Positions 1,098 through 57,496 of a stretch of DNA of 64,000 bases are shown here, in pieces. The first letter of the stretch is position 1, and the number at the start of each line of letters is the position of its first letter. This DNA comes from DASRDR01 sp963812945 [NCBI: uncultured Candidatus Rokubacteria bacterium]. GTDB lineage: Bacteria > Methylomirabilota > Methylomirabilia > Rokubacteriales. A program made the translations under genes and the position numbers. Where the stretch lies: positions 1-64,000 of the forward strand of contig CAWEXD010000008.1 in assembly GCA_963812945.1 (NCBI GenBank), written 5' to 3'. The notes beneath the pieces were generated by a model that worked only from the letters and a program-made list of their open reading frames with translations, did not search any database and was not told the origin of the DNA.

Positions 1098-1944
1098 GTG
1101 GCCTGGGAGTGGGCGTGGCGGCCGGCGGTCGTCCTGTCGGTGGGCCTTCTGGCGGCGCTCTACGTTCGGGGGTGGTGGTGACTTCGTCGCCTTCCGCGCA
1201 CCCGTGACGCGGCGCCCGCGTGGCGGCTCGCGGCCTACCTCGTCGGCCTCGCGAGCGTGATCGTGGCGCTCTGCTCTCCCCTCGAGCTCCTGTCGGAGCT
1301 GTCCTTACCGCGCACATGGTCCAGCATCAGCTCCTGATCATGGTGGCGCCGCCGCTCCTCCTCCTCGGCGAGCCCTTTCCGCCGATCCTGTGGGTCGCTG
1401 CCGCGCCGACTCCGGCGGCGCGTGGCGAGCGTGGTGACGCGGCCCGGCCTGGTCCGTCGCGTCCTGGGTGTCCTGACCTGGATGCCGGTGACGGGCGCCC
1501 TCTACACTCTCGTCCTCGTGGGCTGGCACTATCCTCCGGCCTACGAGGCAGCGCTCCGGCAGCCGGTGCTCCACGACATCGAGCACTTGAGCTTCTTCGG
1601 GCGGCCGTGCTCTTCGGTGGCCTGGTGGTCACCCGGCGCCCCGGTTCCGCCACCTCACGAGCGGGGTGATGTACGGGGCCCGTATCGGGTATCTGATCCT
1701 GGCCACGGCGCAGAACACGCTGCTGGGCGCCGTGCTCGGGCTGGCGGAGCGCGAATTCTACCCGTCCTACGCGGCGGCGCCGCGGCTGCTCCTGGACTGG
1801 AGCGCGGTCGACGACCAGGCGTTCGGCGGCGGCGTGATGTGGTCGGGCAGCCACATGTTCCTGCTGGCCGTGCTCGTCCTCCTGCACCGGGCGATGGACG
1901 CCGAGGGGCGGAAGGCGGATGCACGGGTCCGCCCCATCGTGTAG
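1098..1944 (+). CDS. ctaG: Cytochrome c oxidase caa3 assembly factor CtaG, frameshifted
   Basis: A multi-helix membrane protein of the CtaG_Bsub family (copper delivery and assembly for caa3-type oxidase). Family landmarks appear in order across several frames: WEWAWRP and a first helix, LCSPLELLSELS, the signature HMVQHQLLIMVAPPLLLLG, LVGWHYPPAYEAAL, HDIEHLSFF, AQNTLLGAVLG and the C-terminal GSHMFLLAVLVLLHRAM. The His-rich helices fit metal handling. At least five frame changes and an in-frame TGA at 1179-1181 interrupt it. I read the TGA as an error because no redox residue belongs there. The start at GTG 1098 is a guess. Confidence 0.75.
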
Positions 1945-1958
1945 GATTCGCACAATCC

Positions 1959-2464
1959 ATGCTGGATATCGGGTTCCAGGAACTCGCCGTCATCGGCGTC
2001 CTCGCCCTGCTGATCTTCGGGCCGGATAAGCTCCCCGACCTGGACGCCGGCTGGGTCGGGCCATGCGGGAGTTTCGGCGGGCGAGCGACGAGTTCCGGTC
2101 GACCGTCGAGCAGAACCTCCAGATGAACGTCGACACGGACATCTCGCCGCCGTCGCGGGTCGAGCCCACGCCGGCCAGCCCCACGGACACCAGCGCCGCC
2201 GTGCCGACGGGGTTGCCGGGCAGGGGACTGACGGCCCGGCCACCGAGATCGGCGGGCCCCGACGACACGAAACCGTCCGACGGGCCGCTCGAGCCGTTCT
2301 GGACCAGCCGGGGTGGCCGGCTGCTTCATCGGCGGGAGTGCTCGTGGCGGGCCCGCGTTCCCGAGTCGGAGCGAATCCCCCTCAAGACGGTGCACGACGG
2401 CTGGGACCAGGGCCTCAAGGCGTGTCCGGCGTGCGTCCCGCCGGAGGTTGACCTCCCCTCCTGA
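1959..2464 (+). CDS. TatA/TatB-like translocase component with Cys/His tail, frameshifted
   Basis: The N-terminus (LDIGFQELAVIGVLALLIFG, then PDKLPDL) is the single helix, FGP hinge and amphipathic helix of TatA/TatB, part of the twin-arginine export pathway. One indel near 2045 separates it from the continuation MREFRRASDEFRSTVEQ, which is TatB-like. A Pro/Thr-rich linker follows. The last 45 residues carry an unexpected motif, LLHRRECSW ... AWDQGLKACPAC written loosely (the actual helix is DGWDQGLKACPAC). It resembles the small Ada-type zinc or 'RPC..C' modules. TatB is favoured over TatA because of the long charged helix. Exact family is uncertain because of the frameshift. Confidence 0.7.
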
Positions 2465-16571: not shown

Positions 16572-18008
16572 ATGCCGGTGGTTCGGGTTGCCCGCAACTT
16601 CCTAGCCCACGTCCCGGGACTCGTCCGGCATGGGTCCAAGCCTGCCCGGGAGTTGGCGACCACGCCCAGCCTGGCCGAACGGCTGACGGCTCACTTGCGC
16701 CCCTACGAGCACGCGCTGGCCTACCCGCCGCACCATGCGTTCCTGGGATCGCTCGAACCCGACGCGCTGCGCGAAAGAGAGCGCCCCTGGTTTCTGGCCA
16801 GCGAGCCGGTGCCGCGCTGGCAGCCGCACGGCGAGCTGATGCCCGAGGCGGAGCTCTACGGACTCCTCCGGATCATGGACGCGTTCGAGCTTGTCGGGCT
16901 GGACGCGACGTTCACGCGCGAGGTGCGGCGCGCTCTGTCGGATCACCCGCTCGTTGGGAAAGCGGACCTCGAGCGACTCGGCGACGGTCATCCCACGAGT
17001 GTCATCGAGGATCGGCTGGCGAGGCCCGGCGTGGCGCTCCCGCTGCGGCTCCGGGATGGCCGACTGGTCGGCTGTGTGAGCCGTGGCCATGAGGCGGACG
17101 CGACGCTCACGGCCGACGTCGTGCTGGAGAATCTCGCCTGCAAGGCCACGGCCGTGATGGCGCTCCGGGCGGTGCTCCGCGATGGCGGCTACCACCCGGA
17201 GGGGATCGCCTACGTCCTCAACTGTGGCGAGGAGGCGGTCGGGGAGCGCTACCAGCGAGGCGGCGGGAATCTCGCGAAGGCCATCGCTGAGAGCTGCGGG
17301 CTCGGGGAGGCCACGGGCGCGGACGTCAAGGCGTTCTGCTGCGGGCCGGTCCACGCGCTCGTCATGGCTGGCGCCCTCGTCGCGGCTGGCGTCTTCCCGC
17401 GGGTCGCGGTGGTCGGCGGCGGCTCTCTCGCGAAGCTCGGGATGAAGTTTCAGGGCCACCTCCAGCACGAGCAGCCCATCCTCGAGGACACACTGGCTGC
17501 CGTGGCTACCGTCGTCGAGCCCGACGACGGCGCGAGTCCGATCCTGCGTCTCGACGCCGTCGGCCGTCATCCGGTCGGAGCCGGGTCTTCGCAGCAGGCC
17601 ATCCTCGAGCGGCTGGTGAGACAGCCGCTCGCGCGCCTCGGCATCGGTCTCCGCGATGTCGACAAGTACGCGACGGAGCTCCAGAATCCCGAGCTCACCG
17701 AGCCGTCGGGAAGCGGCGACGTGGCCCGAAGGAACTACCAGCTGCTCGCTGCGCTGGCGGTCGCCGCCGGCGAGATCACGCGGGCGGACATGCCGGCGTT
17801 CGTGGCCCGCCACGGGCTCCCCGGCTTCTCGCCCACGCAAGGACACATCGCCTCGGCGATCCCGTACCTCGCTCGTGGCCTCGACTGTCTGCGGGATGGT
17901 ACGATGCAGCGGGTCATGCTCCTCGCCAAGGGGAGCCTGTTCCTGGGCCGCATGACCCAGCTGTCGGATGGGGTGTCGGTCGTTCTGGAGCGGAACCCCG
18001 GGGCGTGA
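16572..18008 (+). CDS. grdC: Glycine/sarcosine/betaine reductase component C beta subunit (GrdC-like)
   Basis: GrdC has a thiolase-like fold and, with GrdD, receives the acyl group from component A and releases acyl phosphate. Family blocks seen: FLAHVPGLVRHGSKPARE at the N-terminus, YEHALAYPPHHAFLG, MPEAELYGLLRIMDAFEL, AYVLNCGEEAVGERYQRGGG, AFCCGPVHALVMAGALVAAG and VVGGGSLAKLGMKFQGH. It ends HGLPGFSPTQGHIASAIPYL and LFLGRMTQLSDGVSVVLERN. About 478 residues from ATG 16572 is near full length. No grdD follows; the next gene is grdA after 46 bases. The reading frame is clean, unlike the genes upstream. First gene of the Grd operon. Confidence 0.88.
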   Translation: MPVVRVARNFLAHVPGLVRHGSKPARELATTPSLAERLTAHLRPYEHALAYPPHHAFLGSLEPDALRERERPWFLASEPVPRWQPHGELMPEAELYGLLRIMDAFELVGLDATFTREVRRALSDHPLVGKADLERLGDGHPTSVIEDRLARPGVALPLRLRDGRLVGCVSRGHEADATLTADVVLENLACKATAVMALRAVLRDGGYHPEGIAYVLNCGEEAVGERYQRGGGNLAKAIAESCGLGEATGADVKAFCCGPVHALVMAGALVAAGVFPRVAVVGGGSLAKLGMKFQGHLQHEQPILEDTLAAVATVVEPDDGASPILRLDAVGRHPVGAGSSQQAILERLVRQPLARLGIGLRDVDKYATELQNPELTEPSGSGDVARRNYQLLAALAVAAGEITRADMPAFVARHGLPGFSPTQGHIASAIPYLARGLDCLRDGTMQRVMLLAKGSLFLGRMTQLSDGVSVVLERNPGA

Positions 18009-18054
18009 CCTCGGCGCGCTCGACGAAGCGCGCCTGACGCCGGGAGGAGACTAG

Positions 18055-18537
18055 GTGGAGCTGAGGGGCAAGCGTGTCATCGCGGTGGGCGAGCGGGATG
18101 GCGTCCCGGGGCCGTCGATCGCCAAGTGCGCCCGGAGTGCGGGAGCGGAGGTCGTCCTCGAACAGACTCATTGCTTTGTCTGAACCGCCGCCGGTGCGCT
18201 TGGCCTGGAGGGCCAAGAGGCGATCAAGCAGACGGCCCAGCGTCTGGGGACCACCGACCTAGTCGTTCTTCTGGGCACCCCGACGCCGGCCAGCAGCCGG
18301 CTCTACGCGCTCACCGTCACCGAAGGTGATCCCACATGGGCGGGGCCGCTCGCTGGCGAAGCCCTCGGGCTGCCGGTCTTCCACGTCATCGAGCCGGAGG
18401 TCAAGGCCCAGGTCGACGAGCAGGTCTATCAGGCTGAGGTAGGCATGACCGAGTTGGCGCTGGAGGATCCGGACGAGATCGTCGCCGCGGTGCGCGGGGT
18501 CCGGAGCGCCCAGGCAGGTTCCGCCGGCGCCGCGTAG
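18055..18537 (+). CDS. grdA: Glycine reductase protein A (GrdA), selenoprotein with in-frame TGA
   Basis: The small redox carrier of the reductase: its Cys-Sec pair takes up the carboxymethyl group from component B and hands it to component C. GTG 18055 follows GGAGGAG. The frame is continuous for 160 codons to TAG 18535 if TGA at 18181-18183 (codon 43) is read as selenocysteine. That codon lies exactly in the family signature CFVUTAAGA (CxxU). The rest matches GrdA: GKRVIAVGERDGVPGPSI, GDPTWAGPLAGEALGLPVFH and VIEPEVKAQVDEQVY. A perfect hairpin follows the TGA (18199-18217). Length is normal. Read literally, the gene would be split into two meaningless halves. Confidence 0.93.
18199..18217 (+). 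promoter_or_regulatory. Bacterial SECIS hairpin of grdA
   Basis: CTTGGCC and GGCCAAG form a perfect seven-pair stem around the loop TGGAG. The loop starts 22 bases after the TGA and has G at position 2, within the usual bSECIS rules (loop about 16-37 bases downstream, G in the first two loop bases). Confidence 0.85.
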
Positions 18538-18538
18538 C

Positions 18539-19603
18539 ATGAAAGCGGCTCGCTGGCACGGGCGGCGGGACGTGCGGGTCGAGGACGTCCCGGTCCCGAC
18601 GCCGGGGCGCAGCGAGGTGCGGCTCCGCGTCAGCCTCTGCGGCATCTGCGGCACCGATCTCGAGGAGTACCGCCACGGCCCCCTGGTTATCCCGGCCGAC
18701 CGGCCGCATCCGCTCACGGGCCGGCGCGCGCCGGTCACGATGGGCCACGAGTTCTTCGGTGTGGTCGAAGCCCTGGGGCCCGATGTGAAAGGCCTGCGAG
18801 AAGGCGACCGGGTGGCGCCCGACATCTGCCTCTTCTGCGACCGATGCGTCTTCTGTCGGCGGCACCAGTACGCGCTCTGCGAGAACTGGGCGACCATCGG
18901 CCTCCACACCGACGGTGGGCTCGCCGAGTACGTGACGGTGCCCGCCTACGCCTGCGTCCGGCTGCCCGACTCGCTCTCCGACGCGGAGGGCGCCCTGATC
19001 GAGCCGACCGAGGTCGCCGTGCGCGCGGTGAACAAGGCGCCGCCGAGGCTCGGCGACGTCGTGGCCGTGCTGGGCGGCGGCACGATCGGGCTCCTGATCG
19101 TGCAGGTCAGCCGGGCCGCGGGCGCCGGCGAGGTGGTCGTGGTCGAGCCACGGCCCGTGCGCCGCGCGCTTGCGCTCGAGCTGGGCGCCGCCGCCGCGCT
19201 GGATCCGACGGACCCCGGGTGGATGGACGAGCTGCGCCAGCGGACCGGCGCGCTCGGCCCCGACGTCGTGTTCGAGTGCGCGGGCCGACCCGACAGCGCG
19301 AGCCTGGCGATCCGCATGGCGCGGAAGGGCGGCCGGATCGTGCTCGTCGGCATCACCGGGGGCGAGGTGCCGGTCGACATCCTGGATCTTCTGATCGGCG
19401 AGAAGGTCGTCATCGGCACGATCCAGCACACCTACGACGAGGACCTGCCGGCCGCGGTCCGCCTCTTGGCCGATGGCCGCGTCCGGGGCCTCCCGCTGGT
19501 GACCGCGGAGATCCCGCTCGCCGACGTCGTGCGCGGGGGCTTCGAGGCGCTGACGTCACCTGGGCAGGAGAACCTCAAGATCCTCGTCAACCCGCGCGCC
19601 TGA
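18539..19603 (+). CDS. Zinc-dependent medium-chain dehydrogenase
   Basis: NAD(P)-dependent MDR alcohol or polyol dehydrogenase, 354 residues. ATG 18539 overlaps the grdA stop region (TAGCATG). The catalytic zinc site is CGICGTDLEEY with GHEFFGVVE. The structural zinc cluster is DICLFCDRCVFCRRHQYALC, with Cys spacing typical of the family. The nucleotide fold is VVAVLGGGTIGLLIVQV, and the acidic residue of VVEPRP suggests NAD. It is closest in style to 2,3-butanediol/sorbitol/threonine dehydrogenases. It sits between reductase components A and B, so it probably makes or uses the reductase substrate or product. That link is inference. Confidence 0.88.
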   Translation: MKAARWHGRRDVRVEDVPVPTPGRSEVRLRVSLCGICGTDLEEYRHGPLVIPADRPHPLTGRRAPVTMGHEFFGVVEALGPDVKGLREGDRVAPDICLFCDRCVFCRRHQYALCENWATIGLHTDGGLAEYVTVPAYACVRLPDSLSDAEGALIEPTEVAVRAVNKAPPRLGDVVAVLGGGTIGLLIVQVSRAAGAGEVVVVEPRPVRRALALELGAAAALDPTDPGWMDELRQRTGALGPDVVFECAGRPDSASLAIRMARKGGRIVLVGITGGEVPVDILDLLIGEKVVIGTIQHTYDEDLPAAVRLLADGRVRGLPLVTAEIPLADVVRGGFEALTSPGQENLKILVNPRA

Positions 19604-19711
19604 TCGCCGGTTTCGCGCGGTGGGGACCGGAGCCGGCCCCGCCGGGCCGGATGCGGGATGGTAGGATGCATGCGGTGCGGCGCGTAGGCCGGAGCGCCGC
19701 GAGGAGGGGTC

Positions 19712-21058
19712 GTGGGACAGCCAGCCCGCATCGTGCACTACGTGAACCAGTTCTTCGGCGGGATCGGGGGCGAGGAGAAGGCCCACACACCGCTCGAGGT
19801 GCGCGAGGGGCCCGTCGGGCCGGGGCGCGCGCTCCAGCAGGTCCTGGGCGGGCAGGGCACGGTCGTCGCGACGCTCATCTGCGGCGACGACCATGTCGCG
19901 GAGCGCGAGGACGAGGCGGGGGCGGCCATCCGCGAGGCGCTCAGACGCCACAGCCCGGACCTCGTGCTGGCCGGCCCGGCGTTCGACTCTGGCCGCTACG
20001 GTCTCGGGTGCGCCCTGACCTGCCGGGTTGCCCAGTCCCTGGGCATCCCCGCCGTCACGGGCATGTACCCGGACAACGCGGCCATCATCACGCACCGTCG
20101 CGAGCTTCTCGCCGTGCCCACCGGCCTCGATCCGACGGAGATGAAGGCGATCCTCGCCCGGATGGTCGGCCTCGGCCTGAAGCTGGTCCGCGGCGAGCCG
20201 CTCGGCTCCGCCGCGGAGGAGGGGTACATCCCCCACGGGGTCCGCCGGCTCGTCATGAAGGACAAGGTGGGATACGAGCGGGCCGTGGACATGCTCCTCG
20301 CCCAGGTCGCCGGCCGGCCCTTCAGCTCGGAGATCCAGGTGCAGCAGTACGACCGCGTGCCGCCTGCCCGGCCGGTGGGAGATCTCGCGCGCGCGACCAT
20401 CGGGATCGTGGTCAGCACGGGGATCGTCCCGCGCGGGAACCCGGATCACCTACCCGGCGCCCGCGCGCTCGCGGCGGGGCGCTACTCGATCGACGGGCTC
20501 GCCACGCTCGACGTCACCCGGTGGGAGTCGGCGCACGGCGGCTTCAACACGAAGATCCTGAACACCCGGAGCCCCGACTACGCGCTCCCGCTCGCAACGC
20601 TCCGCGCCCTCGAGGCCGAGGGCGCGATCGGCGGGATCTACCCGTGGATCTACAGCACGGTCGGCAACCAGACCGCCGTCGGGCCCGCCCGGGCCATCGG
20701 CCGGCGCGTCGCCGAGGAGTTCAGGGACGCCGGCGTCGCGGCGGCGCTCCAGGTGTCTGGGTGAGGGAGCTGCCATCGTTGCGGCGCAACGATAGCCAAG
20801 GAGCTCGAGCGAGTCGGTATCCCTACCGCGCTGATCGGTGCCCTGCCCGCGATCGCCCTGGCGGCCAACGCGAACCGCGTCGTTCGCGGCGTGCAGGTGC
20901 AGCACCCGTGCGGTGATCCGAAGCTGCCGGCGGAGGCGGACCGCGACCTGAGCCGCCGGATCGTCCTGGCGGCGCTCTCCGCGCTCCAGACGCCGGTCTC
21001 CGAGCCTACGCTGTTCGACCCCCCGGCCGCAGCCCCGGAGCGCGTCAGTGCGACTTGA
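19712..21058 (+). CDS. grdB: GrdB-like reductase component B, selenoprotein with in-frame TGA
   Basis: Substrate-specific selenoprotein subunit of glycine/sarcosine/betaine reductase (GrdB/F/H group). GTG 19712 follows GAGGAGGGG. The N-terminus is IVHYVNQFFGGIGGEEKAH, the family hallmark. Next come LVLAGPAFDSGRYGLGCALT, TGMYPDNAAIITHRRE and SAHGGFNTKILNTRSPDYALP. TGA at 20762-20764 is in frame; beyond it the protein goes on as GSCHRCGATIAKELERVGIP, exactly the UGxCxRCG site of GrdB, and ends LFDPPAAAPERVSAT at 21058. The total is 448 residues, close to the family's usual length. A perfect hairpin follows the TGA. The end overlaps grdE by 11 bases. Confidence 0.93.
20775..20793 (+). promoter_or_regulatory. 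Bacterial SECIS hairpin of the grdB-like gene
   Basis: ATCGTTGC and GCAACGAT form a perfect eight-pair stem with loop GGC. The loop starts 18 bases after the TGA and begins with GG, fitting bSECIS rules. The stem overlaps the codons for the CxxC that follows Sec. Confidence 0.87.
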
Positions 21059-22349
21059 GCTGGCCACCTATCCGGTGAGGGACGTCCGCTTCGGCGCTTC
21101 GACCCGCTGGCGGGACGAGGTACTGGACATCGACCGGGACGAGATCCTGGATCTCGTGCGCCGGGACCCGCTGGTCGCGCGCGCGGCGCTCGAGGTCGCC
21201 CGCCCGGGCGAGTCCACCCGGATCGTGACCATCCAGGACATCATCGAGCCACGTGTGAAGGCGGCGGGGAAGGGTGTCGCCTACCCGGGCCTCGTGGGCC
21301 GCGCGGTGGAGACGGTGGGAACGGGGCGGACGAACCGGCTCGCCGGGTTCACGCTGATGCCCTGCACGCCGCCCCAGGACGTCCAGCGCTACGGTCTCCT
21401 CTCCTCGTTCCGGCCCGGCACCGCGTACGGCGACTTCCTCGACATGTCGGGGCCGGGGGCGATCAGCCCCTGGGCGGCCACCATCAACCTCTGTCTCCTC
21501 ATCGAGCCGGACCCCGGACTCGCGCCCGACCCGGCGAATCGCGTCATCCAGCAGGCGATGCTGGCCGTCCAGGACCGGCTCGCCGCCGCGACGCTCGGCG
21601 AGGTCCCGGCCGACGTCGAGGTCCTGGACCTGAGCCCACGGCCGGGGTTGCCGGGTTTCGTCTACGTCCACAGCATCGTGTCGCCCGAACCCATCTACCT
21701 CAACCCCGATTCGACGCTCTCGACCGCGGTCTACGGCATCACGCGGCTCACCCAGCCGTGGCTGCTCCATCCGACGGAGGTCCTCGACGGGGCGGTCTGC
21801 GGGAGCTTCTTCAGCGGGGACTTCTACCGGTGGTTCACGTGGCCCCTGACGAACAGCATCGTGCTCCACATGTGTCGCCGGCACGGGGTCGACTTCAACT
21901 TCCTCGGCTGCATCATGGTGCGGACGATGTGGGAGGAGCAGCGGCAGAAGGAGCTGATGGCGAACCGCGCGGCGCTGATGGCGACCACGCTCGGGGCGAC
22001 GGGGGCCATCGTCACGCCGACCCTCCGCGGGCAGCGGATGCTCGACACGATGGCCGTCGTCCGGGCCCTCGACGAGGCCGGCGTCAAGACCGTCTTGATC
22101 ACCGAGGAGGAGGACGACGAGGACGGCGCCGCGCCGCCCTTGCTCGTGACCGCGCCGGAGGGCGTGGGCATCGTCAGCACCGGCGACGGCAGCGCGCCGG
22201 GGCCGTTCCCGCCCGTCGAGCGCGTCATCGGCGCCGGCCCGATCGCCCCCGCGTGGTACGAGGCGCAGCCGCCGCCCCTCGGCCGCTACGGCACCAGCCA
22301 TCTGAACGACGTCTGGGGGTTCTCCCGCCTGGCCTGCGTGGACTACTGA
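21048..22349 (+). CDS. grdE: GrdE-like reductase component B proprotein
   Basis: Partner of GrdB. GrdE-type proproteins are cleaved before an internal Cys that becomes a pyruvoyl group, which binds the amino substrate as a Schiff base. GTG 21048 overlaps the grdB end. Family blocks: VRDVRFGASTRWRDEVLDID, EVARPGESTRIV, IIEPRVKA, GRTNRLAGFTLMP and FLDMSGPGA. The cleavage region is EVLDGAVCGSFF, with Cys at residue 251 (21798-21800) as the pyruvoyl candidate. After it come FNFLGCIMVRTMWEEQRQKE and the typical late block HLNDVWGFSRLACVDY. 433 residues, clean frame. Last gene of the operon, convergent with the ABC transporter 27 bases on. Confidence 0.88.
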   Translation: MRLELATYPVRDVRFGASTRWRDEVLDIDRDEILDLVRRDPLVARAALEVARPGESTRIVTIQDIIEPRVKAAGKGVAYPGLVGRAVETVGTGRTNRLAGFTLMPCTPPQDVQRYGLLSSFRPGTAYGDFLDMSGPGAISPWAATINLCLLIEPDPGLAPDPANRVIQQAMLAVQDRLAAATLGEVPADVEVLDLSPRPGLPGFVYVHSIVSPEPIYLNPDSTLSTAVYGITRLTQPWLLHPTEVLDGAVCGSFFSGDFYRWFTWPLTNSIVLHMCRRHGVDFNFLGCIMVRTMWEEQRQKELMANRAALMATTLGATGAIVTPTLRGQRMLDTMAVVRALDEAGVKTVLITEEEDDEDGAAPPLLVTAPEGVGIVSTGDGSAPGPFPPVERVIGAGPIAPAWYEAQPPPLGRYGTSHLNDVWGFSRLACVDY

Positions 22350-22376: not shown

Positions 22377-23226
22377 CTACCCCTTGATGGTCCCGAACGT
22401 CAGGCCCTTGATCAGGTGGCGCTGCATGACCCCGATGAAGAGCACGATCGGGGCGAGAATGCCCACGGCGCCCGCCGCGGACCAGGACCAGTACTCGATC
22501 CGCTCGGCCCCGTACTGGGCGATGGCCACCGAGAGGGGCTTGGCCTGGTTGCCGGTGAGGATGAGGCAGTAGAGGAACTCGTTGTAGGCGAAGAGGAAGG
22601 TGAACAGGGCCGCGGTGAACACGCCGGGGCGCACCACGGGCAGCACCACTCGCACGAAGGCGCCGAACGAGCTGCAGCCGTCGATCATCGCGGCCTCGGG
22701 GAGCTCCCGGGGCACGTCGAGGAAGAATCCGCGCATCAGCCAGATCGCGAACGGCTGGTTGAAGGCGACGATGATGAGAATGATGAGGATGTGCGTGTCG
22801 TAGAGCTCGGCGGCCCGGGCGAGCAGGAAGAAGGGGACCAGCAGGAGGATGCGCGGGAACGCCCGGACGGCCAGGAGCGTGAAGAGGAGCACCTGGATCG
22901 GCCGGCTCCGGTAGCGCGCCAGGTAGTACGCCGCCATGCAGCCCAGCGGGATCGAGAGCAGCACCGCGCCGGTCGTGATGATGAGCGTGTTGACCAGGTA
23001 GCGGGGGAACGGCGTCTCCAGCCAGATGTAGCGGTGGTGCTCGAGCGTCGGCGTGAAGATCCAGGTCGGTGGGATCGTGAAGGCCTCGCGGCGTGACCTT
23101 GAGCGACGTCGTGAGCGCGAAATAGATCGGAAACAGGGAGACCACGACCACCGCCAGGAGCGCGAGGTAGAGCAGCGCCTGCACGACGACCACCCGGGGC
23201 CCGATCCGCCGCCGGCGGCTCACCAC
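22377..23226 (-). CDS. ABC transporter permease, MalG/UgpE type, one frameshift
   Basis: Inner-membrane permease of a carbohydrate-uptake (CUT1) importer. It starts at GTG 23226 or 23223, overlapping the stop of the other permease, with RRRRIGPRVVVVQALLYLAL and a first helix. An indel near 23095 separates this from TPFPRYLVNTLIITTGAVLL. The conserved cytoplasmic EAA loop is RELPEAAMIDGCSSFGAFVR with VLPVVRPG. Later motifs are NEFLYCLILTGN and the end KGLTFGTIKG, typical of MalG-like subunits. The substrate is unknown; it lies beside the Grd operon. Confidence 0.85.
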
Positions 23227-24161
23227 TCGCCCTTCTCCCGCCGATAGAGGAGGTAGATCCAAAACCCGATGACTCCTGACAAGATCAGAAGCGTGACGAC
23301 CCCCAGAGCGGAGGCGCGCCCCATGCGGAGCATGCGGAACGCCATGACGTAGTTGTAGAAGGTGATGGTCTGGGTCGTCGTGCCCGGGCCGCCGCCGGTC
23401 ATCACGAACACCTGATCGAAGATGCGGAAGGCGTCCATCGACCGGATGATCAGCACGAAGAGCACGAGCGGGCGCAGGAACGGGAAGATGACGTGGACCA
23501 GGGTCTGGGTCCGGCTGGCCCCGTCCACCATCGCCGCCTCCAGCGGCTCCTCGGGAATGCTCTGGAGGCCGGCGTAGAGCACGAGGATGACGAAGGGCGT
23601 GTACTGCCACACGTCGGCGATGATGATCGCCCAGAGCGCCCAGACTGGATCACCCGTCCACCCCGGCCCTCGCACACCGACCAAAGAGAGGAAGTAGTTC
23701 ACGAGCCCCCAGTTGCTCTCGAACATCCACCGCATGAGGAGCCCGGCGACGGCGGGCGTGATCGTCATCGGCAAGAGGACCACGGTGCTGACGAAGCGCC
23801 GGCACGGGATGCGGGCGTCGAGGAGCAACGCGACGGCGGCGCCGAGGACGAGCTCGATGGCGACGGCGGCGACGGTGAACCGCGCGGTGACCCCGAGGGC
23901 GTCCCAGAACGCGTCGTCGCCGAGGATGTACGTGAAGTTGTCGAGCCCGACGAAGGTCTTCCGGGGGACCGGGAGGTAGTAGTTGTAGAAGCTGAGGCCC
24001 ACGCTGTAGACGAGCGGGTAGAAGAGGATGACCGACAGGACGGTCAGGCTCGGGACGAGGAAGATCAGGCGGTCGCGGCGCTGCTGCCGGCTCACGCGGG
24101 CCCGCCGGCGGCCGGCGAGCCCCGGCCACGCCCGGGCGCGGCGCGACGGGCGTGCGAGCAT
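23220..24161 (-). CDS. ABC transporter permease, MalF/UgpA type
   Basis: Second permease of the CUT1-type importer, 313 residues from ATG 24161 (a start at 24236 is possible but adds an unconserved stretch). A basic N-terminus precedes LIFLVPSLTVLSVILFYPLV. The segment FVGLDNFTYILGDDAFWDAL is typical of MalF-like subunits. The EAA loop is EPLEAAMVDGASRTQTLVHV with IFPFLRPLV, and GGGPGTTTQTITFYNY follows. The order is SBP, this permease, then the MalG-type permease. No ATPase gene is in the window, so a shared MsmX-like ATPase is probably used. Confidence 0.9.
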   Translation of the reverse strand: MLARPSRRARAWPGLAGRRRARVSRQQRRDRLIFLVPSLTVLSVILFYPLVYSVGLSFYNYYLPVPRKTFVGLDNFTYILGDDAFWDALGVTARFTVAAVAIELVLGAAVALLLDARIPCRRFVSTVVLLPMTITPAVAGLLMRWMFESNWGLVNYFLSLVGVRGPGWTGDPVWALWAIIIADVWQYTPFVILVLYAGLQSIPEEPLEAAMVDGASRTQTLVHVIFPFLRPLVLFVLIIRSMDAFRIFDQVFVMTGGGPGTTTQTITFYNYVMAFRMLRMGRASALGVVTLLILSGVIGFWIYLLYRREKGEW

Positions 24162-24261
24162 CCGAGCGGCAGTGATGGAGGCGCCGGAGCTGGTCGGCTG
24201 GTCCCGCACGGCCGGATGGGACGAGCGCGTGCTCACCCCGTCCGGCCGTGTCGGAGCCCGG

Positions 24262-25566
24262 CTACTTCTTGTAGTAGCCCTTCTCGGTCATGAGGTCGTG
24301 CATGACCTTCTGGGCGCGCTTGAGCGACTCCGGGATCGTCAGCTCGGCCGTGAGGCCCTTCTGGAGGGTCTGGGTGACCTGGAGCATCGCCTCCGAGAAC
24401 TCGGGGTTGGTCGGGACGAGCCGGGCTCCTGCCTGGATGTTGTCCGAGGCCGCCTTGATGAAGCGGAACTTCTGCGTGACCTCGGGATCCCGCGTCACGG
24501 ACATCCGGGTCGGGGTCGCCAACCCGGCCGACTCTCGCATGTTCGCCTTGTTCATGGTCTTGGCGATCACCTGGAAGACCAGCCCGGGGTCGTTCTTCGT
24601 GTAGGCGCTGATCGAGTAGCAGCCCACCGCGAGCCGGGGGTGGCTCCGCCCGCCCTTCGTCGCCGCCGGGGGCACCGCGAACTGGACCTTACCGACCACC
24701 TGGGAGACCTGGGCGTTGTCCATGGCCGCGGCCCGCGATTGCCACAGGAGGCCCATGGTGGTGAGACCCTGCTGCATCGCCACCGTGGACTCGTCGTTGT
24801 GGAAGGCCAGCACGTTGGGCGGCGCGTACTTCATCAGCTCCTTCATCGTCGTCAGGGCCTTGACGCCCGCCTCGCTGTCGATCGTCACCTTCCAGTCCTT
24901 GTCGTACCAGTCGCCCCCGTAGGTCCGGAGGAAGTACGTGAAGTCGTTCTGGAAGCCGTCCCCGGCCTTGAGCGTCATGGCCGTCCCGTACTGCTTCTGA
25001 TCGGGCTTCGTCAGGGCCTTGGCGGTCGCGATCCACTCGTCCATCGTCTCGGGGGGCTTGAGGCCGGCCGCGTCGAGGAGGTCCTTCCGATAGAAGAAGA
25101 ACATCGAGATCGACAGGTTCGGGACGCCATAGACCTTGCCCTTGTACGAGCACACTTCCCGGACCAGGGTCGGGTTGATGTCGTCCCACTCGACCGCCTG
25201 GCGGAACTTGTCGATGAGCGGGTCGAGCGGCATGAGCCAGCCGCGCTCGGCGAAGGTCGGCAGGAAGGCGTCCGTCGCCATGATGTCGTAGGTCGGCGCG
25301 CCCTGGGAGAGGTGGATCTGCATCTTCTCGAGCGCCTGGTCGAAGGGGATCAGTTCCGACTCGAACTTGATCCCGGGGTATTCACCCATCTTCTTCGCCC
25401 AGAACTCGAGCATCGGGAAGCGATGGCTGATGTACCGGACCGTGGGATCCGCCGCCCAGGCCGTCGGCCCGGGACCTCGCCAGATCGCCGCCGCTGCGGC
25501 CCCGGCCAGCAGGAACAAAGACAGCACGAAGAGTCGGCCCCGCCGCCGTTGCAATTGCCGAATCAT
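24262..25566 (-). CDS. Extracellular solute-binding protein, family 1
   Basis: Periplasmic or lipid-free exported receptor of the CUT1 importer, 434 residues. The signal peptide is RRGRLFVLSLFLLAGAAAAA, cleaved around AWAADP. Mature hallmarks: TVRYISHRFPMLEFWAKKM, YDIMATDAFLPTFAERGWLM, GKVYGVPNLSISMFFFYRKD and LLDAAGLKPPETMDEWIATA, the standard maltose/glycerol-phosphate-binding fold. It is the first gene of the transporter operon. The substrate cannot be read from sequence; a sugar, polyol or osmolyte is likely. It is in the same tRNA-bounded segment as the Grd genes. Confidence 0.9.
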   Translation of the reverse strand: MIRQLQRRRGRLFVLSLFLLAGAAAAAIWRGPGPTAWAADPTVRYISHRFPMLEFWAKKMGEYPGIKFESELIPFDQALEKMQIHLSQGAPTYDIMATDAFLPTFAERGWLMPLDPLIDKFRQAVEWDDINPTLVREVCSYKGKVYGVPNLSISMFFFYRKDLLDAAGLKPPETMDEWIATAKALTKPDQKQYGTAMTLKAGDGFQNDFTYFLRTYGGDWYDKDWKVTIDSEAGVKALTTMKELMKYAPPNVLAFHNDESTVAMQQGLTTMGLLWQSRAAAMDNAQVSQVVGKVQFAVPPAATKGGRSHPRLAVGCYSISAYTKNDPGLVFQVIAKTMNKANMRESAGLATPTRMSVTRDPEVTQKFRFIKAASDNIQAGARLVPTNPEFSEAMLQVTQTLQKGLTAELTIPESLKRAQKVMHDLMTEKGYYKK

Positions 25567-25902
25567 GACCGAGCCGCCTTTCTGCCCGCCGCTGTCGCGC
25601 GGCAGACCGAACGAGACGTGACACCAGCCTCTACTGGCGAGAAGGGACCGCCCGACCGAAGCTCGGGAGGGCCGGACGCGCCATCATGATGGACAGCCGG
25701 CCAGATTCCTGTCAAGGCACCGAGATGACGGGGCCGCTGGCGCAGTCCGCCCGGCCGCACTATCCTGGGCAACGCGCCACGAGCGCCGAGGGTGGCGAAT
25801 ACGGATGCCGAATGGCGGAGCGTGCCGAATGCCTCAGTTCAGTGGACGACGTGCCGAGTGGCGAGTGAGTCTCTGGCCGCTCCTCTGCCGGAGGTTCTCG
25901 CG

Positions 25903-26982
25903 ATGACCCGTCCCTTGCGGGTGGGCATCGTCGGGCTCGGTCGCATCTTCGACCTGAACTGCCTCGGCTACCGCGACAACCCGGACGCGACGGTGGTGGC
26001 ACTCTGCGACAGCCGCCAGGATCTCCTCGACCGGCGAGCCTCGCTCTTCCCGAAGGCGCAGCTCGTCCGGGACGTCGGAGAGTTCCTGCGTCTCGATCTG
26101 GACCTGGTCGACGTCCTCACGCCCCACCCCCTCCACGCCGAAATGGCGGTGGCAGCCATGCGGGCGGGCGCCCACGTCAGCGTGCAGAAGCCCATGGCCA
26201 TGCTGGTGGCGGAGGCCGACAGCATGCTCGCCACGGCGAGGGAGACGGGCCGCCATCTCAAGTGCTTTGAGAACTTCATCTTCTACGCGCCTCTCGTCCG
26301 AGCCAAGGCGCTCCTCGATGCAGGAGCGATCGGCCGACCCTTGCACTTTCGTATGAAGATCGTATCCGGGGACCGGCAGTACGCCTGGCCGGTGCCGGTT
26401 GAGGCGACGGCGTGGAGACAGGCGCTCGGACGCGCAGGGCTTGGGGGTCCGCTGGTGTTCGACCACGGCCACCACCTGCTCGCCGTCGCATGTTGGCTGT
26501 TCGGGGACGTTCGGGACGTCTTCGCCCGCATCGAGGAGACGACCCTCCCGAGCGGCAGCGTCGTCGACGCGCCGGCCTCGCTGACATGGCGCCATTGGGA
26601 CCCGCCGGTCCACGGGATCTGGGACATCTCCGCCGCGCCGAGGATGCGCATCCGGACCGACTACTATCCCGGACACGAGCAGTTCGAGATCCAGGGGGAG
26701 ACGGGCATCATCACAGTCACCCGGTGCAGCGACCGCCTGCTCGACGAGCCAGTCCTCACGCTCTATGCCGACGGCGAGGTGCGCGCCTTCCACAACCTCG
26801 AGGCCGACTGGGGCGTGAGCTTCCGGCTGTCCACTGAACACTTCGTGCGGTTCGTGCGCGGCCAGGAGCCCCGTCCGATCCTCACCGCGATGGAAGGCCG
26901 TCGGGTGCTGGAGTTCGCACACCTCCTCATGCGATCCTCGCGAGAGGAACGGCCTCTGTCGCTCCCACGGAGTGATTGCTGA
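25903..26982 (+). CDS. Gfo/Idh/MocA family oxidoreductase
   Basis: NAD(P)-dependent sugar-type dehydrogenase. ATG 25903 follows GGAGG at 25890-25894. The Rossmann start is PLRVGIVGLGRIFDLNCLGY. The catalytic Lys is in VSVQKPMAM (family EKP; here Gln-Lys-Pro), and a conserved His-rich helix DHGHHLLAVACWLFG carries the second active-site His. The C-terminal beta sheet includes YYPGHEQFEIQGETGIITV. 359 residues, normal length, intact frame. Acts on sugars or inositol-like polyols in known members. Being the last gene before the right tRNA-Gly repeat, it probably belongs to the same catabolic island. Confidence 0.88.
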   Translation: MTRPLRVGIVGLGRIFDLNCLGYRDNPDATVVALCDSRQDLLDRRASLFPKAQLVRDVGEFLRLDLDLVDVLTPHPLHAEMAVAAMRAGAHVSVQKPMAMLVAEADSMLATARETGRHLKCFENFIFYAPLVRAKALLDAGAIGRPLHFRMKIVSGDRQYAWPVPVEATAWRQALGRAGLGGPLVFDHGHHLLAVACWLFGDVRDVFARIEETTLPSGSVVDAPASLTWRHWDPPVHGIWDISAAPRMRIRTDYYPGHEQFEIQGETGIITVTRCSDRLLDEPVLTLYADGEVRAFHNLEADWGVSFRLSTEHFVRFVRGQEPRPILTAMEGRRVLEFAHLLMRSSREERPLSLPRSDC

Positions 26983-35367: not shown

Positions 35368-36876
35368 TCAGGCGAGGCGCGCTTCGGATCCGCGCGCCCG
35401 ACGCCGGCGGAGCGCGCCCACGACCGGCAGGCAGAGCGACACGAGGACCAGGCCCAGCAGGGTGGCAGCCAGAGGGCGCTGGACGAAGATGGCCGGGCTG
35501 CCGAACGACAGGAGCAGCGACTGGCGGAGCGAGGTTTCCAGGAGGGGCGCGAGCACCACGGCCAGCACGAGCGGAGCCCTGGGGAAGTCGAGCTTCATCA
35601 TGCACCAGCCGACGGCCCCGAACGTCAGGCTGATCGCGACGGTGGTGGAGTCGAGCGTGCTGGCGTAGGCGCCGACCAGCGAGATGGCGAGGATGCCGGG
35701 CGCGAGATAGGCGTAGGGAATTCGAAGGAGCGACGCGAAGAGCGGCGCGAGCGGCAGGTTGATGACGAGCAGCACGATGTTGCCGATGAACATGCTGGCG
35801 ATCAGGCCCCAGACGAGCTGAGGCTGCTCGGTCATCAGCATCGGGCCCGGCCTGATGCCGTGCAGGATGAGGGCGGCGAGCAGCACGGCGGTGCTCGTGG
35901 AGCCCGGGATGCCGAGGGCCAGCATGGGCACGCAGTCGCCATGGACGGCCGAGTTGTTGGCCGACTCCGCGGCGGCGACGGCGTCGAGGGCGCCCTTGCC
36001 GAAGCGCTCGGGATGGCGGCTGAAGCGCCGCTCCGTGACGTAGGCGAGCATCGAGGCGACGGTCGGGCCCGCGCCGGGCATGACGCCGATCACGAAGCCG
36101 ACCAGTCCGCCACGTACGATCGCCATGCGGCTCTCCGCCCACTCCTCGGCCGTCAGCCACATGGAGCGAAGGCTCGTGCGGATCGGCTGCAGCTCCTCCG
36201 TGCGTTCGAGCGATGCAAGCACCTCGGCGATGCCGAAGATGCCGATCGCCACGGGGAGGAAGTCGATGCCCTCGACCAGCTGGACCTCGCCGAAGGTGAG
36301 TCGCGGGATTCCGGTGATGGGGTCGACGCCGACCATGGCGATCATCAGGCCCAGCAGGGCGGCCATCAGCGCCTTGACCGCCGACGCGCCGCCGAGACTG
36401 GCGCTGGCCGTGATACCGAGCGATGCGAGCAAAAAGTACTCCGGCGCGTTGAACCTCAGCGCGAACTCGCTCAGCAGTGGCGTGAGCAGCGCGAGGGCGG
36501 CGACCGCCGCCATTCCGGCGGCGAACGACCCGATGGCGGCGATGCTGAGCGCGGCGCCGGCGCGTCCGCGGCGCGCGATCTGGTAGCCGTCCACCGCGGT
36601 CATGACGCTGGCCGCCTCGCCCGGCACGTTGACGAGCACCGAGGTGAGGGTGCCGCCGTACATGCCGCCGTACATGATGCCGGCCAGCATGACGATCGCC
36701 GTGACCGGCGGCAGCCCGAAGGTGAGGGGGAGCAGGAGGGCCATCCCGGCCGACGGGCCGATCCCGGGCAGCGCGCCGATGATCTGGCCGAGCACCACGC
36801 CCACCACGACGAACGACAGGTTGAGCGGGGTCAGCGCCGTCGCGAAGCCGCTCGCCAAGAGCCCGAGGGAGTCGAT
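35368..36876 (-). CDS. tctA: Tripartite tricarboxylate transporter large permease TctA
   Basis: Main membrane subunit of a TTT-family importer for di- or tricarboxylates, about 500 residues. Signatures: VGQIIGALPGIGPSAGMALL-type first motif (seen as VVLGQIIGALPGIGPSAG), GIMYGGMYGGTLTSVLVNVP and the second GVMPGAGPTVASMLAYV. Then HGDCVPMLALGIPGSTSTAV and a C-terminal FDFPRAPLVLAVVLAP-like block (here LDFPRAPLV). The best N-terminus begins at ATC 36874-36876 (IDSLGLLASGFATALTP) with GGAGGG upstream. No ATG, GTG or TTG fits, so the start is non-canonical or mis-sequenced. The operon order is tctC, tctB, tctA. Confidence 0.9.
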   Translation of the reverse strand: MDSLGLLASGFATALTPLNLSFVVVGVVLGQIIGALPGIGPSAGMALLLPLTFGLPPVTAIVMLAGIMYGGMYGGTLTSVLVNVPGEAASVMTAVDGYQIARRGRAGAALSIAAIGSFAAGMAAVAALALLTPLLSEFALRFNAPEYFLLASLGITASASLGGASAVKALMAALLGLMIAMVGVDPITGIPRLTFGEVQLVEGIDFLPVAIGIFGIAEVLASLERTEELQPIRTSLRSMWLTAEEWAESRMAIVRGGLVGFVIGVMPGAGPTVASMLAYVTERRFSRHPERFGKGALDAVAAAESANNSAVHGDCVPMLALGIPGSTSTAVLLAALILHGIRPGPMLMTEQPQLVWGLIASMFIGNIVLLVINLPLAPLFASLLRIPYAYLAPGILAISLVGAYASTLDSTTVAISLTFGAVGWCMMKLDFPRAPLVLAVVLAPLLETSLRQSLLLSFGSPAIFVQRPLAATLLGLVLVSLCLPVVGALRRRRARGSEARLA

Positions 36877-36902
36877 CGGACACCCTCCGTGGGGGCGAGC
36901 CG

Positions 36903-37355
36903 TCAGAATCCGGTGAGGCCGGTGGGCAGGCGCACGCCGAGCCACCGGACGAAGACGGCGTAGATCAGTCCGGTCGTGATGGCCGTCGTCGCGAGGCTCG
37001 GTGCGATCCCGCGCCGCTGCACGACGATCAGGAGGAAGACCATGAACAGCGCCGCGCTGGACATCATGCCGAGCACGGGCGACAGCACGCCGAACGCGAC
37101 GAGGGCGGCGAAGGCCATGGCGACGCGCCGAAAGCCCTCCCGGCCCGGCCACTCAACCCCGGCGGCACCCCCGCGGCCGCGCGTCTCGACGAGCAGAAGC
37201 GCGGACAGCAGCACGCCGGCCCCCGCCGCCCAGATGGGGAGGAAAGCCGGCCCCGGGGTGAAGTCGCTCCAGTAGCCGAGGTGCCAGGTCCCGAGCGCGG
37301 CGGTGGCCGACAGCGCGAGGAGCGCGATCGCCGGAAGGACGTCGCTCATCCTCAT
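36903..37355 (-). CDS. tctB: Tripartite tricarboxylate transporter small subunit TctB
   Basis: 150 residues with four predicted helices: LPAIALLALSATAALGTWHL, FLPIWAAGAGVLLSALLLVE, VAMAFAALVAFGVLSPVLGM and SLATTAITTGLIYAVFVRWL, ending GVRLPTGLTGF. The GPAFLPIW and final 'LGVRLPTG' blocks are typical of TctB. It stabilises TctA. ATG 37355 is used; ATG 37349 is equally possible. It lies between tctC and tctA. Confidence 0.87.
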   Translation of the reverse strand: MRMSDVLPAIALLALSATAALGTWHLGYWSDFTPGPAFLPIWAAGAGVLLSALLLVETRGRGGAAGVEWPGREGFRRVAMAFAALVAFGVLSPVLGMMSSAALFMVFLLIVVQRRGIAPSLATTAITTGLIYAVFVRWLGVRLPTGLTGF

Positions 37356-37377
37356 CGCTGTCGGCCGGCCGGCTCGG

Positions 37378-38379
37378 CTACTTCTTGGCGAGGCCCAGCT
37401 CCGCCATCAGCGTCCGGTAGGTCTCCTGCTGCTTGGCGAGGTACTCCTTCACCCGATCGAGGCCGTAGAACTCGCTCCGCTGGAACTTTGCCTTGAGGCC
37501 GTCCTGCCAGGCCTTGGTGTTCACGACCTTGCGGAACTTGTCCTCCCACCAGACGGCGAGCTCCGGGCTCGAGCCCGGCGGCAGCGCGACGCTCCAGTTC
37601 TGACCGAACACGACGTCGTAGCCCTGCTCCTTCGCGGTCGGCACGTCCTTGTAAGAGTCCTCGGGGCGGCGCTTCTCGGACAGGATCGCGAGCGGGCGCG
37701 CCTTTTGGGCCTTGATCTGCTCGAGGCCCTCTTCGAGCGTGCCAAAGGTGGCCTCGACGTTGCCACCCAGGAACGCGGCAAAGGCGGCCCCGCCGCCGTC
37801 GAACGGCACGTAGGTGAACTTGACGTCGCCGGCCTTCTCGAGCAGGGCGGTGGACAGGTGATCGGTGCCGCCGGTCTGGGCGCCGGCGATCCGGACCCGG
37901 CGCGGCTCCTTCTTCGCGGCCTCCATGAAGTCCTTCAGGGTCCGGTACGGCGAGTTGGGCGCGACGAGGAGGACCAGCTCCGACTGGATGAAGCCGGCGA
38001 CCGGCACGATCTGGTCGATCACCGACGGGGTGCCTTGCATGATCGGCGTGGTGTACACCGGCTGGGCAATGCACAGCAGCGTGTTCTCGTCACCCTTCTT
38101 GCCGAGCGCGTGGTTGTAGGCATTGGCCCACGAGCCCCCGGTGCGGTTCTGCACCACGACCGGGTTGGGGACGATCTTCTCTTCCGTCATGATCTTGACG
38201 ACGTTGCGCATGATGACGTCGGGCGTCCCGCCGGGGCTCGAGCCGACGGTGATCTCGATCGGCCCCGTCGGCGCCTTGCCCTGCGCCGTGACCGGAGTGG
38301 GAGCGAGCGCCGCGATCACTCCGAGGGCCAGCAGGGCGGCGAGCGTTCGAGCGCGGCCGGGGATCCCGTTCGTGGGCAT
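37378..38379 (-). CDS. tctC: Tripartite tricarboxylate transporter receptor TctC (Bug family)
   Basis: Periplasmic solute receptor, 333 residues. ATG 38379 follows GGAGGAAACCCG. The signal peptide RTLAALLALGVIAALAPTPV ends near VTAQG. Mature hallmarks: ITVGSSPGGTPDVIMRNVV, VVVQNRTGGSWANAYNHAL, FMEAAKKEPRRVRIAGAQTG, TDHLSTALLEKAG and YVPFDGGGAAFAAFLGGNVE, the Bug two-lobe fold. No Asp at the classic carboxylate position can be confirmed by eye, so the ligand is open. First gene of the tctCBA operon. Confidence 0.9.
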   Translation of the reverse strand: MPTNGIPGRARTLAALLALGVIAALAPTPVTAQGKAPTGPIEITVGSSPGGTPDVIMRNVVKIMTEEKIVPNPVVVQNRTGGSWANAYNHALGKKGDENTLLCIAQPVYTTPIMQGTPSVIDQIVPVAGFIQSELVLLVAPNSPYRTLKDFMEAAKKEPRRVRIAGAQTGGTDHLSTALLEKAGDVKFTYVPFDGGGAAFAAFLGGNVEATFGTLEEGLEQIKAQKARPLAILSEKRRPEDSYKDVPTAKEQGYDVVFGQNWSVALPPGSSPELAVWWEDKFRKVVNTKAWQDGLKAKFQRSEFYGLDRVKEYLAKQQETYRTLMAELGLAKK

Positions 38380-38512
38380 CGGGTTTCCTCCCTGTGTTGG
38401 TGCGATGGGGGGCGCGTTACAGAGCCGAGCGTAGAATGGCCCTCGCGCTCTCGTCAATAGCGTCGGTGGCTCCGGGTGCCCGACGTCGAGGGGCCGGTGC
38501 TATCCTCGGGGC

Positions 38513-55394: not shown

Positions 55395-55408
55395 CGCGGC
55401 ATTCCCTC

Positions 55409-57481: not shown

Positions 57482-57496
57482 GTCTCTTGCCTCCCG

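What the first reader, a model, noticed from the sequence alone, without database searches (positions are those of the whole stretch)
16572..22349. Selenocysteine-dependent glycine-reductase-type operon in an unexpected setting
Genes for component C-beta, protein A, a zinc dehydrogenase, a GrdB-like and a GrdE-like subunit lie in one strand-consistent run with short gaps or overlaps. Two have in-frame TGA at the exact family Sec sites. Classical Grd systems belong to anaerobic amino-acid fermenters. Here the operon sits in a high-GC genome with a cytochrome oxidase assembly gene. The frames in this run are clean, while neighbours are riddled with indels, so the TGAs are not errors.
Basis: partly seen in the sequence, partly recalled or inferred. 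Interest (0 to 1): 0.95.

Follow-up and report, generated by a model that had tools for sequence, protein, structure and literature searches.

The report
Selenium enzyme operon in soil bacteria
A soil bacterium carries an intact-looking set of selenium-using genes related to glycine reductase, but parts needed to use glycine and to make acetyl phosphate seem to be missing, so it may cut another small compound in a new way.

Summary
Window 16572-22349 encodes GrdC, GrdA, a zinc dehydrogenase, GrdB and a GrdE-like protein on one strand. GrdA and GrdB each carry one in-frame TGA at the family Sec site; over the genes collected, window and references included, 19 of 19 GrdA and 37 of 39 GrdB places do (the other two are incomplete). 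The GrdB hairpin behind the UGA is kept against codon bias. The window's own genome is not held; relatives have tRNA-Sec and SelB.

It is not a glycine reductase proper. The GrdE-like protein lacks the pyruvoyl-forming cysteine, GrdB misses published glycine and sarcosine motifs, and substrate-specific cut-offs are missed. GrdD, which makes acetyl phosphate, passed its cut-off in 0 of 95 genomes of the relatives' phylum and 0 of 393 of the SAR202 relative's class; GrdA did in 16 and 14.

Best reading: a modular selenoenzyme that cleaves a C-X bond without a Schiff base and passes the acyl group from GrdC to CoA, not phosphate. Substrate and acceptor are inferred. New variant of a known kind.

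The parts
16572..18008 (+). GrdC-like component C beta, 478 aa, without the C-terminal tail of GrdD-partnered GrdC
   Evidence: NF040746 596.6 bits over cut-off 450; alignment
18055..18537 (+). GrdA selenoprotein, 160 aa, GTG start
   Evidence: NF040748 187.4 bits over cut-off 130; TGA at codon 43
18181..18183 (+). TGA read as Sec in GrdA (CFVU)
   Evidence: TGA in 19 of 19 GrdA genes collected, window and 4 reference genes included
18199..18217 (+). hairpin behind the GrdA UGA, possible SECIS
   Evidence: folds in the window; covariation inconclusive
18539..19603 (+). zinc-dependent alcohol dehydrogenase-type protein, 354 aa; no match in the other Grd regions compared
   Evidence: PF08240 and PF00107; all NCBIfam hits below cut-off; tblastn
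19712..21058 (+). GrdB-like selenoprotein, 448 aa, GTG start, UxxCxxC motif
   Evidence: TIGR01918 396 bits over cut-off 65; below the GrdB, GrdF and GrdH cut-offs
20762..20764 (+). TGA read as Sec in GrdB (codon 351)
20775..20793 (+). 8-bp hairpin behind the GrdB UGA, SECIS-like
   Evidence: paired changes; codon-bias dips; energy rank not exceptional
21048..22349 (+). GrdE-like subunit, 433 aa, GTG start inside the end of GrdB
   Evidence: PF09338 231 bits; below the GrdG and FarE cut-offs
21798..21800 (+). Cys251 codon of the clade-specific DGA[V/A]CG motif, 4 alignment columns before the usual pyruvoyl cysteine
   Evidence: numbering

Best explanation
A selenocysteine-dependent reductase of the glycine-reductase superfamily with a substrate-specific component B (GrdB + GrdE-like) of a clade shared by Rokubacteria-type and SAR202-type bacteria. 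Shown by sequence: UGA at both Sec sites, SECIS-like hairpin in GrdB, GrdC and GrdA family membership, loss of the pyruvoyl-forming cysteine, loss of the GrdC tail, no GrdD above cut-off in relatives. Inferred: the GrdB selenolate attacks the carbon next to a carboxylate in a substrate whose leaving group needs no Schiff base (a quaternary amine, sulfonium, halide or similar). The carboxyalkyl group moves to the Sec of GrdA, GrdC turns it into an acyl thioester, and, with GrdD absent, the acyl group goes to CoA (as in the related ketoacyl synthase III fold) and so feeds central metabolism rather than acetyl-phosphate ATP synthesis. Thioredoxin would re-reduce GrdA. Several B components share one GrdA-GrdC pair.
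For: Family scores. Sec sites conserved. GrdB hairpin: 13 cells changed on both sides, 0 of 500 shuffles as high; third-base G+C at codons +4, +5, +8 is 0.07, 0.33, 0.07 against a gene mean of 0.915 in 15 genes. tRNA-Sec 6 of 6, SelB 5 of 6; SelA beside SelB in the two loci checked. Pyruvoyl cysteine in 3 of 5 references and 0 of 32 others; FarE and GrdI are described as lacking it too (PMC10838667, passages). Published GrdB/GrdF motifs in 3 of 5 references and 0 of 33 others. GrdD over cut-off 0 of 6, 0 of 95, 0 of 393 against GrdA 6, 16, 14. The GrdC tail is in 3 of 3 GrdD-partnered GrdC and in 0 of the 8 other rows printed, of 13 aligned. GrdB matches 3-10 per genome with one GrdA. Own clade in the B trees. 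Operon GrdC-GrdA-GrdB-GrdE with a thioredoxin gene upstream in G096.
Against: No substrate, acceptor or expression datum. The own genome is not held, so GrdD or Sec genes outside the 64 kb cannot be excluded. The whole-genome GrdD searches contain no genome over cut-off, so the positive control is indirect. Hairpin energy is not exceptional within these G+C-rich genes; two weaker third-base dips (+12, +16, both 0.60) lie outside the hairpin; pairs with a change on both sides: 3, reached by 30 of 500 shuffles. A clade-specific cysteine near the lost one might still form a carbonyl. Both structure models were too poor to use. tRNA-Sec was not found in 4 of the 16 GrdA-positive genomes of the phylum under strict filters, and is not commoner in them (12 of 16) than in the phylum (79 of 95).
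Confidence: 0.5

Rival explanations
1. An ordinary glycine, sarcosine or betaine reductase that has merely drifted, with GrdD unseen elsewhere in the genome.
For: GrdA and GrdC pass family cut-offs and GrdB passes the general family; Dehalococcoidia glycine reductases are reported (PMC9751293).
Against: No pyruvoyl cysteine, no glycine or sarcosine motif, GrdB below all three specific cut-offs, GrdD 0 of 95 and 0 of 393, separate clade. Betaine stays possible on the cysteine alone, though GrdB scores only 348 against the GrdH cut-off of 775.
Confidence: 0.2
2. The GrdE-like protein forms its carbonyl from the shifted clade-specific Cys251 (DGA[V/A]CG), so the substrate is an amine bound by Schiff base after all.
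For: The cysteine is in 7 of 7 rows of the window's kind (window, L066, L071, L137, L003, L004, L005) and in none of the other 25 non-reference rows.
Against: DGA lines up without a gap, so the cysteine is displaced; 24 of the other 25 non-reference rows have no cysteine within 16 columns of the site (L140 has one 5 columns later), while GrdB keeps its Sec in all their complete partners.
Confidence: 0.12
3. The complex serves redox protection in respiring cells (peroxidase-like use of GrdB) rather than catabolism.
For: [quoted passage not shown] a CtaG piece lies in the window.
Against: All 16 GrdA-positive genomes of the phylum also have a GrdE-like gene, and GrdC stands beside GrdA in the regions read; a peroxidase would need neither. 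Several B pairs per genome fit substrates better.
Confidence: 0.08
4. The TGAs are sequencing errors or decay.
For: Some neighbouring ORFs look broken.
Against: The same TGA stands in independent relatives; the hairpin is kept against codon bias; alignments run full length.
Confidence: 0.02

Closest known systems
Glycine reductase (GrdABCDE) of Clostridia
   Same: GrdA with CxxU, GrdB with UxxCxxC, GrdC, a GrdE homolog; the GrdB hairpin sequence is nearly the same
   Different: No pyruvoyl cysteine, no GrdB glycine motif, no GrdD found, short GrdC
Betaine reductase (GrdH/GrdI), Enterococcus gilvus reference
   Same: Component B without the pyruvoyl cysteine
   Different: GrdB 348 bits against the GrdH cut-off of 775; other clade; the reference has grdD beside grdC
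Sarcosine reductase (GrdF/GrdG), Peptoclostridium acidaminophilum
   Same: Best-scoring specific models for window GrdB (407 bits) and GrdE-like (172 bits)
   Different: Far below cut-offs 800 and 780; GrdF motif absent; no GNC cysteine
Fluoroacetate reductase FarB/FarE of Cloacibacillus (PMC10838667, passages)
   Same: Non-pyruvoyl component B predicted to feed GrdA and GrdC; the FarE model is the second hit of the GrdE-like protein
   Different: 105 bits against cut-off 675; FarB is said to lack the CxxC that window GrdB has; the five genes here include no antiporter or radical SAM gene
Dehalococcoidia and Lithacetigenota glycine reductases (PMC9751293, sections 7 and 16 and passages)
   Same: Grd genes in Chloroflexota
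   Different: That survey filtered homologs by the glycine GrdB motif, which the window and its relatives fail; its main text does not name GrdD, Rokubacteria or SAR202; its supplements were not seen

Membership tests
Glycine reductase complex | GrdA with CxxU at the family site | tested here: met
Glycine reductase complex | GrdB with Sec in UxxCxxC | tested here: met
Glycine reductase complex | GrdC above the equivalog cut-off | tested here: met
   596.6 over 450
Glycine reductase complex | GrdE pro-protein cysteine that becomes pyruvoyl | tested here: not met
   Cys at the reference position 242 column in 3 of 5 references, Phe in the window
Glycine reductase complex | GrdB glycine motif and TIGR01917 cut-off | tested here: not met
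   motif absent; 368 bits against 602
Glycine reductase complex | GrdD (component C alpha) | tested here: not met
   tblastn with E. gilvus GrdD at E 1e-4: no hit in the 64-kb window or the Rokubacteria and Chloroflexota regions, hits in the two other GrdC-bearing reference regions; relatives 0 of 6, 0 of 95, 0 of 393 over cut-off. The window's own genome is not held.
Sarcosine reductase | GrdF motif and GrdF/GrdG cut-offs | tested here: not met
Betaine reductase | GrdH cut-off | tested here: not met
   348 against 775
Betaine reductase | no pyruvoyl cysteine in the alpha subunit | tested here: met
Fluoroacetate reductase | FarE cut-off | tested here: not met
   105 against 675
Bacterial selenoproteins | in-frame UGA conserved at the active site | tested here: met
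Bacterial selenoproteins | SECIS hairpin behind the GrdB UGA | tested here: met
   energy rank test negative
Bacterial selenoproteins | SECIS hairpin behind the GrdA UGA | tested here: inconclusive
Bacterial selenoproteins | SelA, SelB, tRNA-Sec in the same genome | tested here: inconclusive
   own genome not held; present in relatives
Bacterial selenoproteins | SelD | not tested

The most novel reading that the evidence does not exclude
A GrdD-less branch of the glycine-reductase superfamily in uncultured, probably respiring soil and ocean bacteria: many exchangeable Sec-containing B components cleave diverse C-X bonds of small organic acids and feed one GrdA-GrdC pair that makes acyl-CoA instead of acetyl phosphate.
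Probability: 0.3. Interest if true: 0.8.

Novelty: new variant of a known kind. Interest (0 to 1): 0.62.

Why it matters
If right, glycine-reductase chemistry is not confined to amino-acid fermenters making acetyl phosphate. It would be a selenium-dependent way for uncultured soil and ocean lineages to break bonds in small organic acids, with testable substrates and a testable product (acyl-CoA against acetyl phosphate).

Tried and rejected
TGA as error, decay or another code: rejected, because relatives keep TGA at the same codons and three of the five genes have no internal TGA. Canonical glycine reductase: rejected on the cysteine, motif, cut-off and GrdD tests. Solved structures: GrdB gave one weak hit to a cytochrome trimer over about 30 residues (E 2.2e-4), judged spurious, and the GrdE-like protein gave none. 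Structure prediction of the GrdE-like protein (mean pLDDT 42.7) and GrdC (33.2) was too poor, and no fold search was run. Hairpin energy against other stretches of the same genes gave no signal: median rank p 0.58 for 19 GrdA and 0.55 for 37 GrdB, with 0 and 1 below 0.1; codon bias and paired changes were tested after that. Substrate from gene neighbours: no consistent neighbour was found (dehydrogenase only in the window; class IV aminotransferase and a TPP enzyme nearest to, but below the cut-off of, oxalyl-CoA decarboxylase in L005; SBP_bac_8 binding proteins in L001 and L006; a 2-hydroxyacid dehydrogenase beside another paralog in L062), so no substrate is named. The ABC importer after GrdE is on the opposite strand and was left out of the operon.

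Dropped or weak rows: the B trees used 29 GrdB and 29 GrdE rows and left out L073 (front of GrdB joined to back of GrdE, about 1.3 kb missing) and rows of 300 residues or fewer. The motif test ran on 38 GrdB rows of 360 residues or more, of which L073 and L067 are incomplete and L080 has an internal TAG. In the GrdC tree the L063 row is read in a broken frame and its place means nothing. In the GrdC alignment 11 of 16 rows were printed, and part of that call's output (GrdA tail, start of GrdE) was cut from view. Rows are not independent: several come from near-identical genomes.
Full report
The observation. Five genes lie on the + strand of the window: GrdC 16572-18008, GrdA 18055-18537, a zinc dehydrogenase 18539-19603, GrdB 19712-21058 and a GrdE-like gene 21048-22349. 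GrdC scores 596.6 bits (cut-off 450) and GrdA 187.4 (130). GrdB passes the general selenoprotein-B family with 396 bits but stays below the cut-offs of the glycine (368 of 602), sarcosine (407 of 800) and betaine (348 of 775) models. The GrdE-like protein reaches 172 of 780 for GrdG and 105 of 675 for FarE. GrdA has one internal TGA at codon 43 and GrdB one at codon 351; the other three genes have none. GrdB and GrdE overlap by 11 bases.

Selenocysteine. A scan of the genome-contig collection with the GrdE-like protein gave 6 loci: three Rokuibacteriota soil MAGs (86, 87 and, for a partial match, 91% identity) and three Chloroflexota MAGs, titled Dehalococcoidia, SAR202 and Chloroflexi (68-69%). 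The GrdB TGA is kept in five of these; the sixth (L006, the L073 region) lacks that part of the gene. Over the regions collected later, window and reference genes included, 19 of 19 GrdA and 37 of 39 GrdB carry TGA at the site; the two without are a contig-end piece and L073. The 42 bases from the GrdB UGA on align without gaps in 37 sequences (34 distinct). The 8-bp hairpin forms standard pairs in 92.6% of cells with 13 cells changed on both sides (0 of 500 shuffles as high); 3 pairs have such a change (30 of 500 shuffles reach that), and the outermost pair forms in 19 of 34. In 15 GrdB genes with mean third-base G+C of 0.915, codons +4, +5 and +8 fall to 0.07, 0.33 and 0.07, and these bases lie in the hairpin; weaker dips at +12 and +16 (0.60) do not. 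In the window gene 2 of 429 other six-codon stretches are as low as +5 to +10; one of the 15 genes (L069) shows no dip. Against this, hairpin energy is not unusual within these genes, and the GrdA hairpin shows no clear covariation. In the six genomes holding the loci, tRNA-Sec passes threshold in 6 of 6 and SelB in 5 of 6; SelA stands next to SelB in the two loci checked. SelD was not tested. In the phylum of G001, tRNA-Sec is found in 79 of 95 genomes, and in 12 of the 16 with GrdA, so the two are not linked by this count.

Where the window comes from. No genome is held for it. A 19.9-kb stretch outside the operon matches 79 of 95 genomes of the phylum of G001 (the Rokuibacteriota MAG AR28), at 64-88% DNA identity in the rows shown, chiefly the kdp genes, a stretch near 48-51.5 kb and an ABC permease region. 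No other phylum was searched with it. With 80-82% identity of GrdB and 86-91% of GrdE to the three Rokuibacteriota loci, this points to that phylum but does not prove it. I call it Methylomirabilota because Rokubacteria are placed there (PMC8780371, abstract and passage), and the class of G004 (a SAR202 MAG) Dehalococcoidia from recall. The nearest complete operon is in G096: GrdC-GrdA-GrdB-GrdE at 72, 76, 77 and 82% identity, without the dehydrogenase and with a thioredoxin gene upstream.

What is missing. In E. gilvus, Acetoanaerobium and Photobacterium records grdD lies beside grdC. The GrdD model gives 552 bits with the E. gilvus protein, but passes its cut-off of 350 in 0 of 6, 0 of 95 and 0 of 393 genomes, where GrdA passes in 6, 16 and 14. 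The 393 were drawn evenly from a larger class. Weak GrdD matches occur in 3 of 6, 89 of 95 and 250 of 393 genomes (about 19-48 bits in the rows shown, mostly near profile positions 110-230), and in 7 of 14 control genomes; I take them for the related PlsX, from recall. The three GrdC proteins from GrdD-bearing operons have 511-513 residues with a C-terminal tail; the eight other rows printed end before it, and of the 13 others all measure 475-484 apart from L140 (434, cut at its front); L063 (477) is read in a broken frame.

GrdE. The cysteine that becomes the pyruvoyl group (title of Bednarski 2001 seen in the reference list of PMC3091704; residue 242 recalled) matches a GNC cysteine at position 242 in Acetoanaerobium and Peptoclostridium. 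It is present in 3 of 5 references (not in the two of betaine type) and in 0 of 32 other rows, the window included. PMC10838667 (passages) states that FarE and betaine GrdI likewise lack processing cysteines. The window's kind has its own cysteine four columns earlier, in 7 of 7 rows. Published GrdB and GrdF motifs match 3 of 5 references and 0 of 33 others.

Modularity. Genomes G001 to G006 hold 3, 6, 10, 7, 4 and 3 GrdB matches (fragments included) but one GrdA each, usually with a GrdE-like gene close by. In the GrdB and GrdE trees the window, AR28, AR8 and the three Chloroflexota form a clade of six with 100/100 support, apart from all five references (G096 was not in these trees). In the GrdC tree the window groups with G096 (97/94) and next with the two Chloroflexota rows (97/94).

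Reading. The chemistry that follows from the Grd mechanism (GrdB selenolate attack, carboxyalkyl on GrdA, acyl thioester on GrdC) is inferred from homology. Loss of the Schiff-base group points to a leaving group that needs none. Loss of GrdD and of the GrdC tail suggests that the acyl group does not go to phosphate; transfer to CoA is my proposal from the ketoacyl-synthase kinship of GrdC (a PF08545 match of 23.1 bits, just under its cut-off of 24). That these bacteria respire rests on the CtaG piece and recall. Substrate and acceptor are untested.

Prior literature. PMC9751293 (sections 7 and 16 and passages) reports Dehalococcoidia glycine reductases and a GTDB survey filtered by the glycine motif. 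PMC2398784 (passages) found GrdA as a single sequence in ocean data. PMC13188914 (passages) says that aerobic bacteria rarely retain selenoproteins. Searches for Rokubacteria + glycine reductase + selenoprotein gave 0 papers, SAR202 + selenocysteine 2, Rokubacteria + selenoprotein 1, none on this subject by title and abstract start. Wider searches listed 20 of 94, 20 of 807, 25 of 142 and 20 of 20 papers, and I saw none on a GrdD-less system in those listings. The library is open-access only, so absence from print is not shown.

Noticed in passing
window 22377-26982: ABC importer with an SBP_bac_1 binding protein (- strand) convergent with the Grd genes, and a divergent Gfo/Idh/MocA oxidoreductase.
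   Followed up: partly
window 1422-2126: CtaG piece and a TatA-type piece in one reading frame, which suggests a frame break between two genes.
   Followed up: no
window 54819-59302: kdp potassium transport genes with about 73-85% DNA identity to genomes of the G001 phylum.
   Followed up: partly
window 35368-38457: Tripartite tricarboxylate transporter pair, TctA and TctC.
   Followed up: no
L006 9214-10573: In AR14 the front of GrdB runs straight into the back of GrdE, with about 1.3 kb missing: a deletion or an assembly fault.
   Followed up: no
L003 738-2093: A UGSC-family piece lies among the Grd paralogs of UBA2160 (33.6 bits).
   Followed up: no
window 16572-22349: GrdC and GrdA have lower third-base G+C (0.86, 0.83) than the dehydrogenase, GrdB and GrdE (0.93, 0.92, 0.95), as if two modules had been joined.
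   Followed up: no
L062 3287-4264: A 2-hydroxyacid dehydrogenase stands before another GrdE-GrdB pair; ORFs of the same length (325 aa) stand there in L064, L143 and L144 but were not scanned.
   Followed up: partly
L080 1197-2549: This SAR202 GrdB paralog has an in-frame TAG at codon 75 besides its Sec TGA.
   Followed up: no
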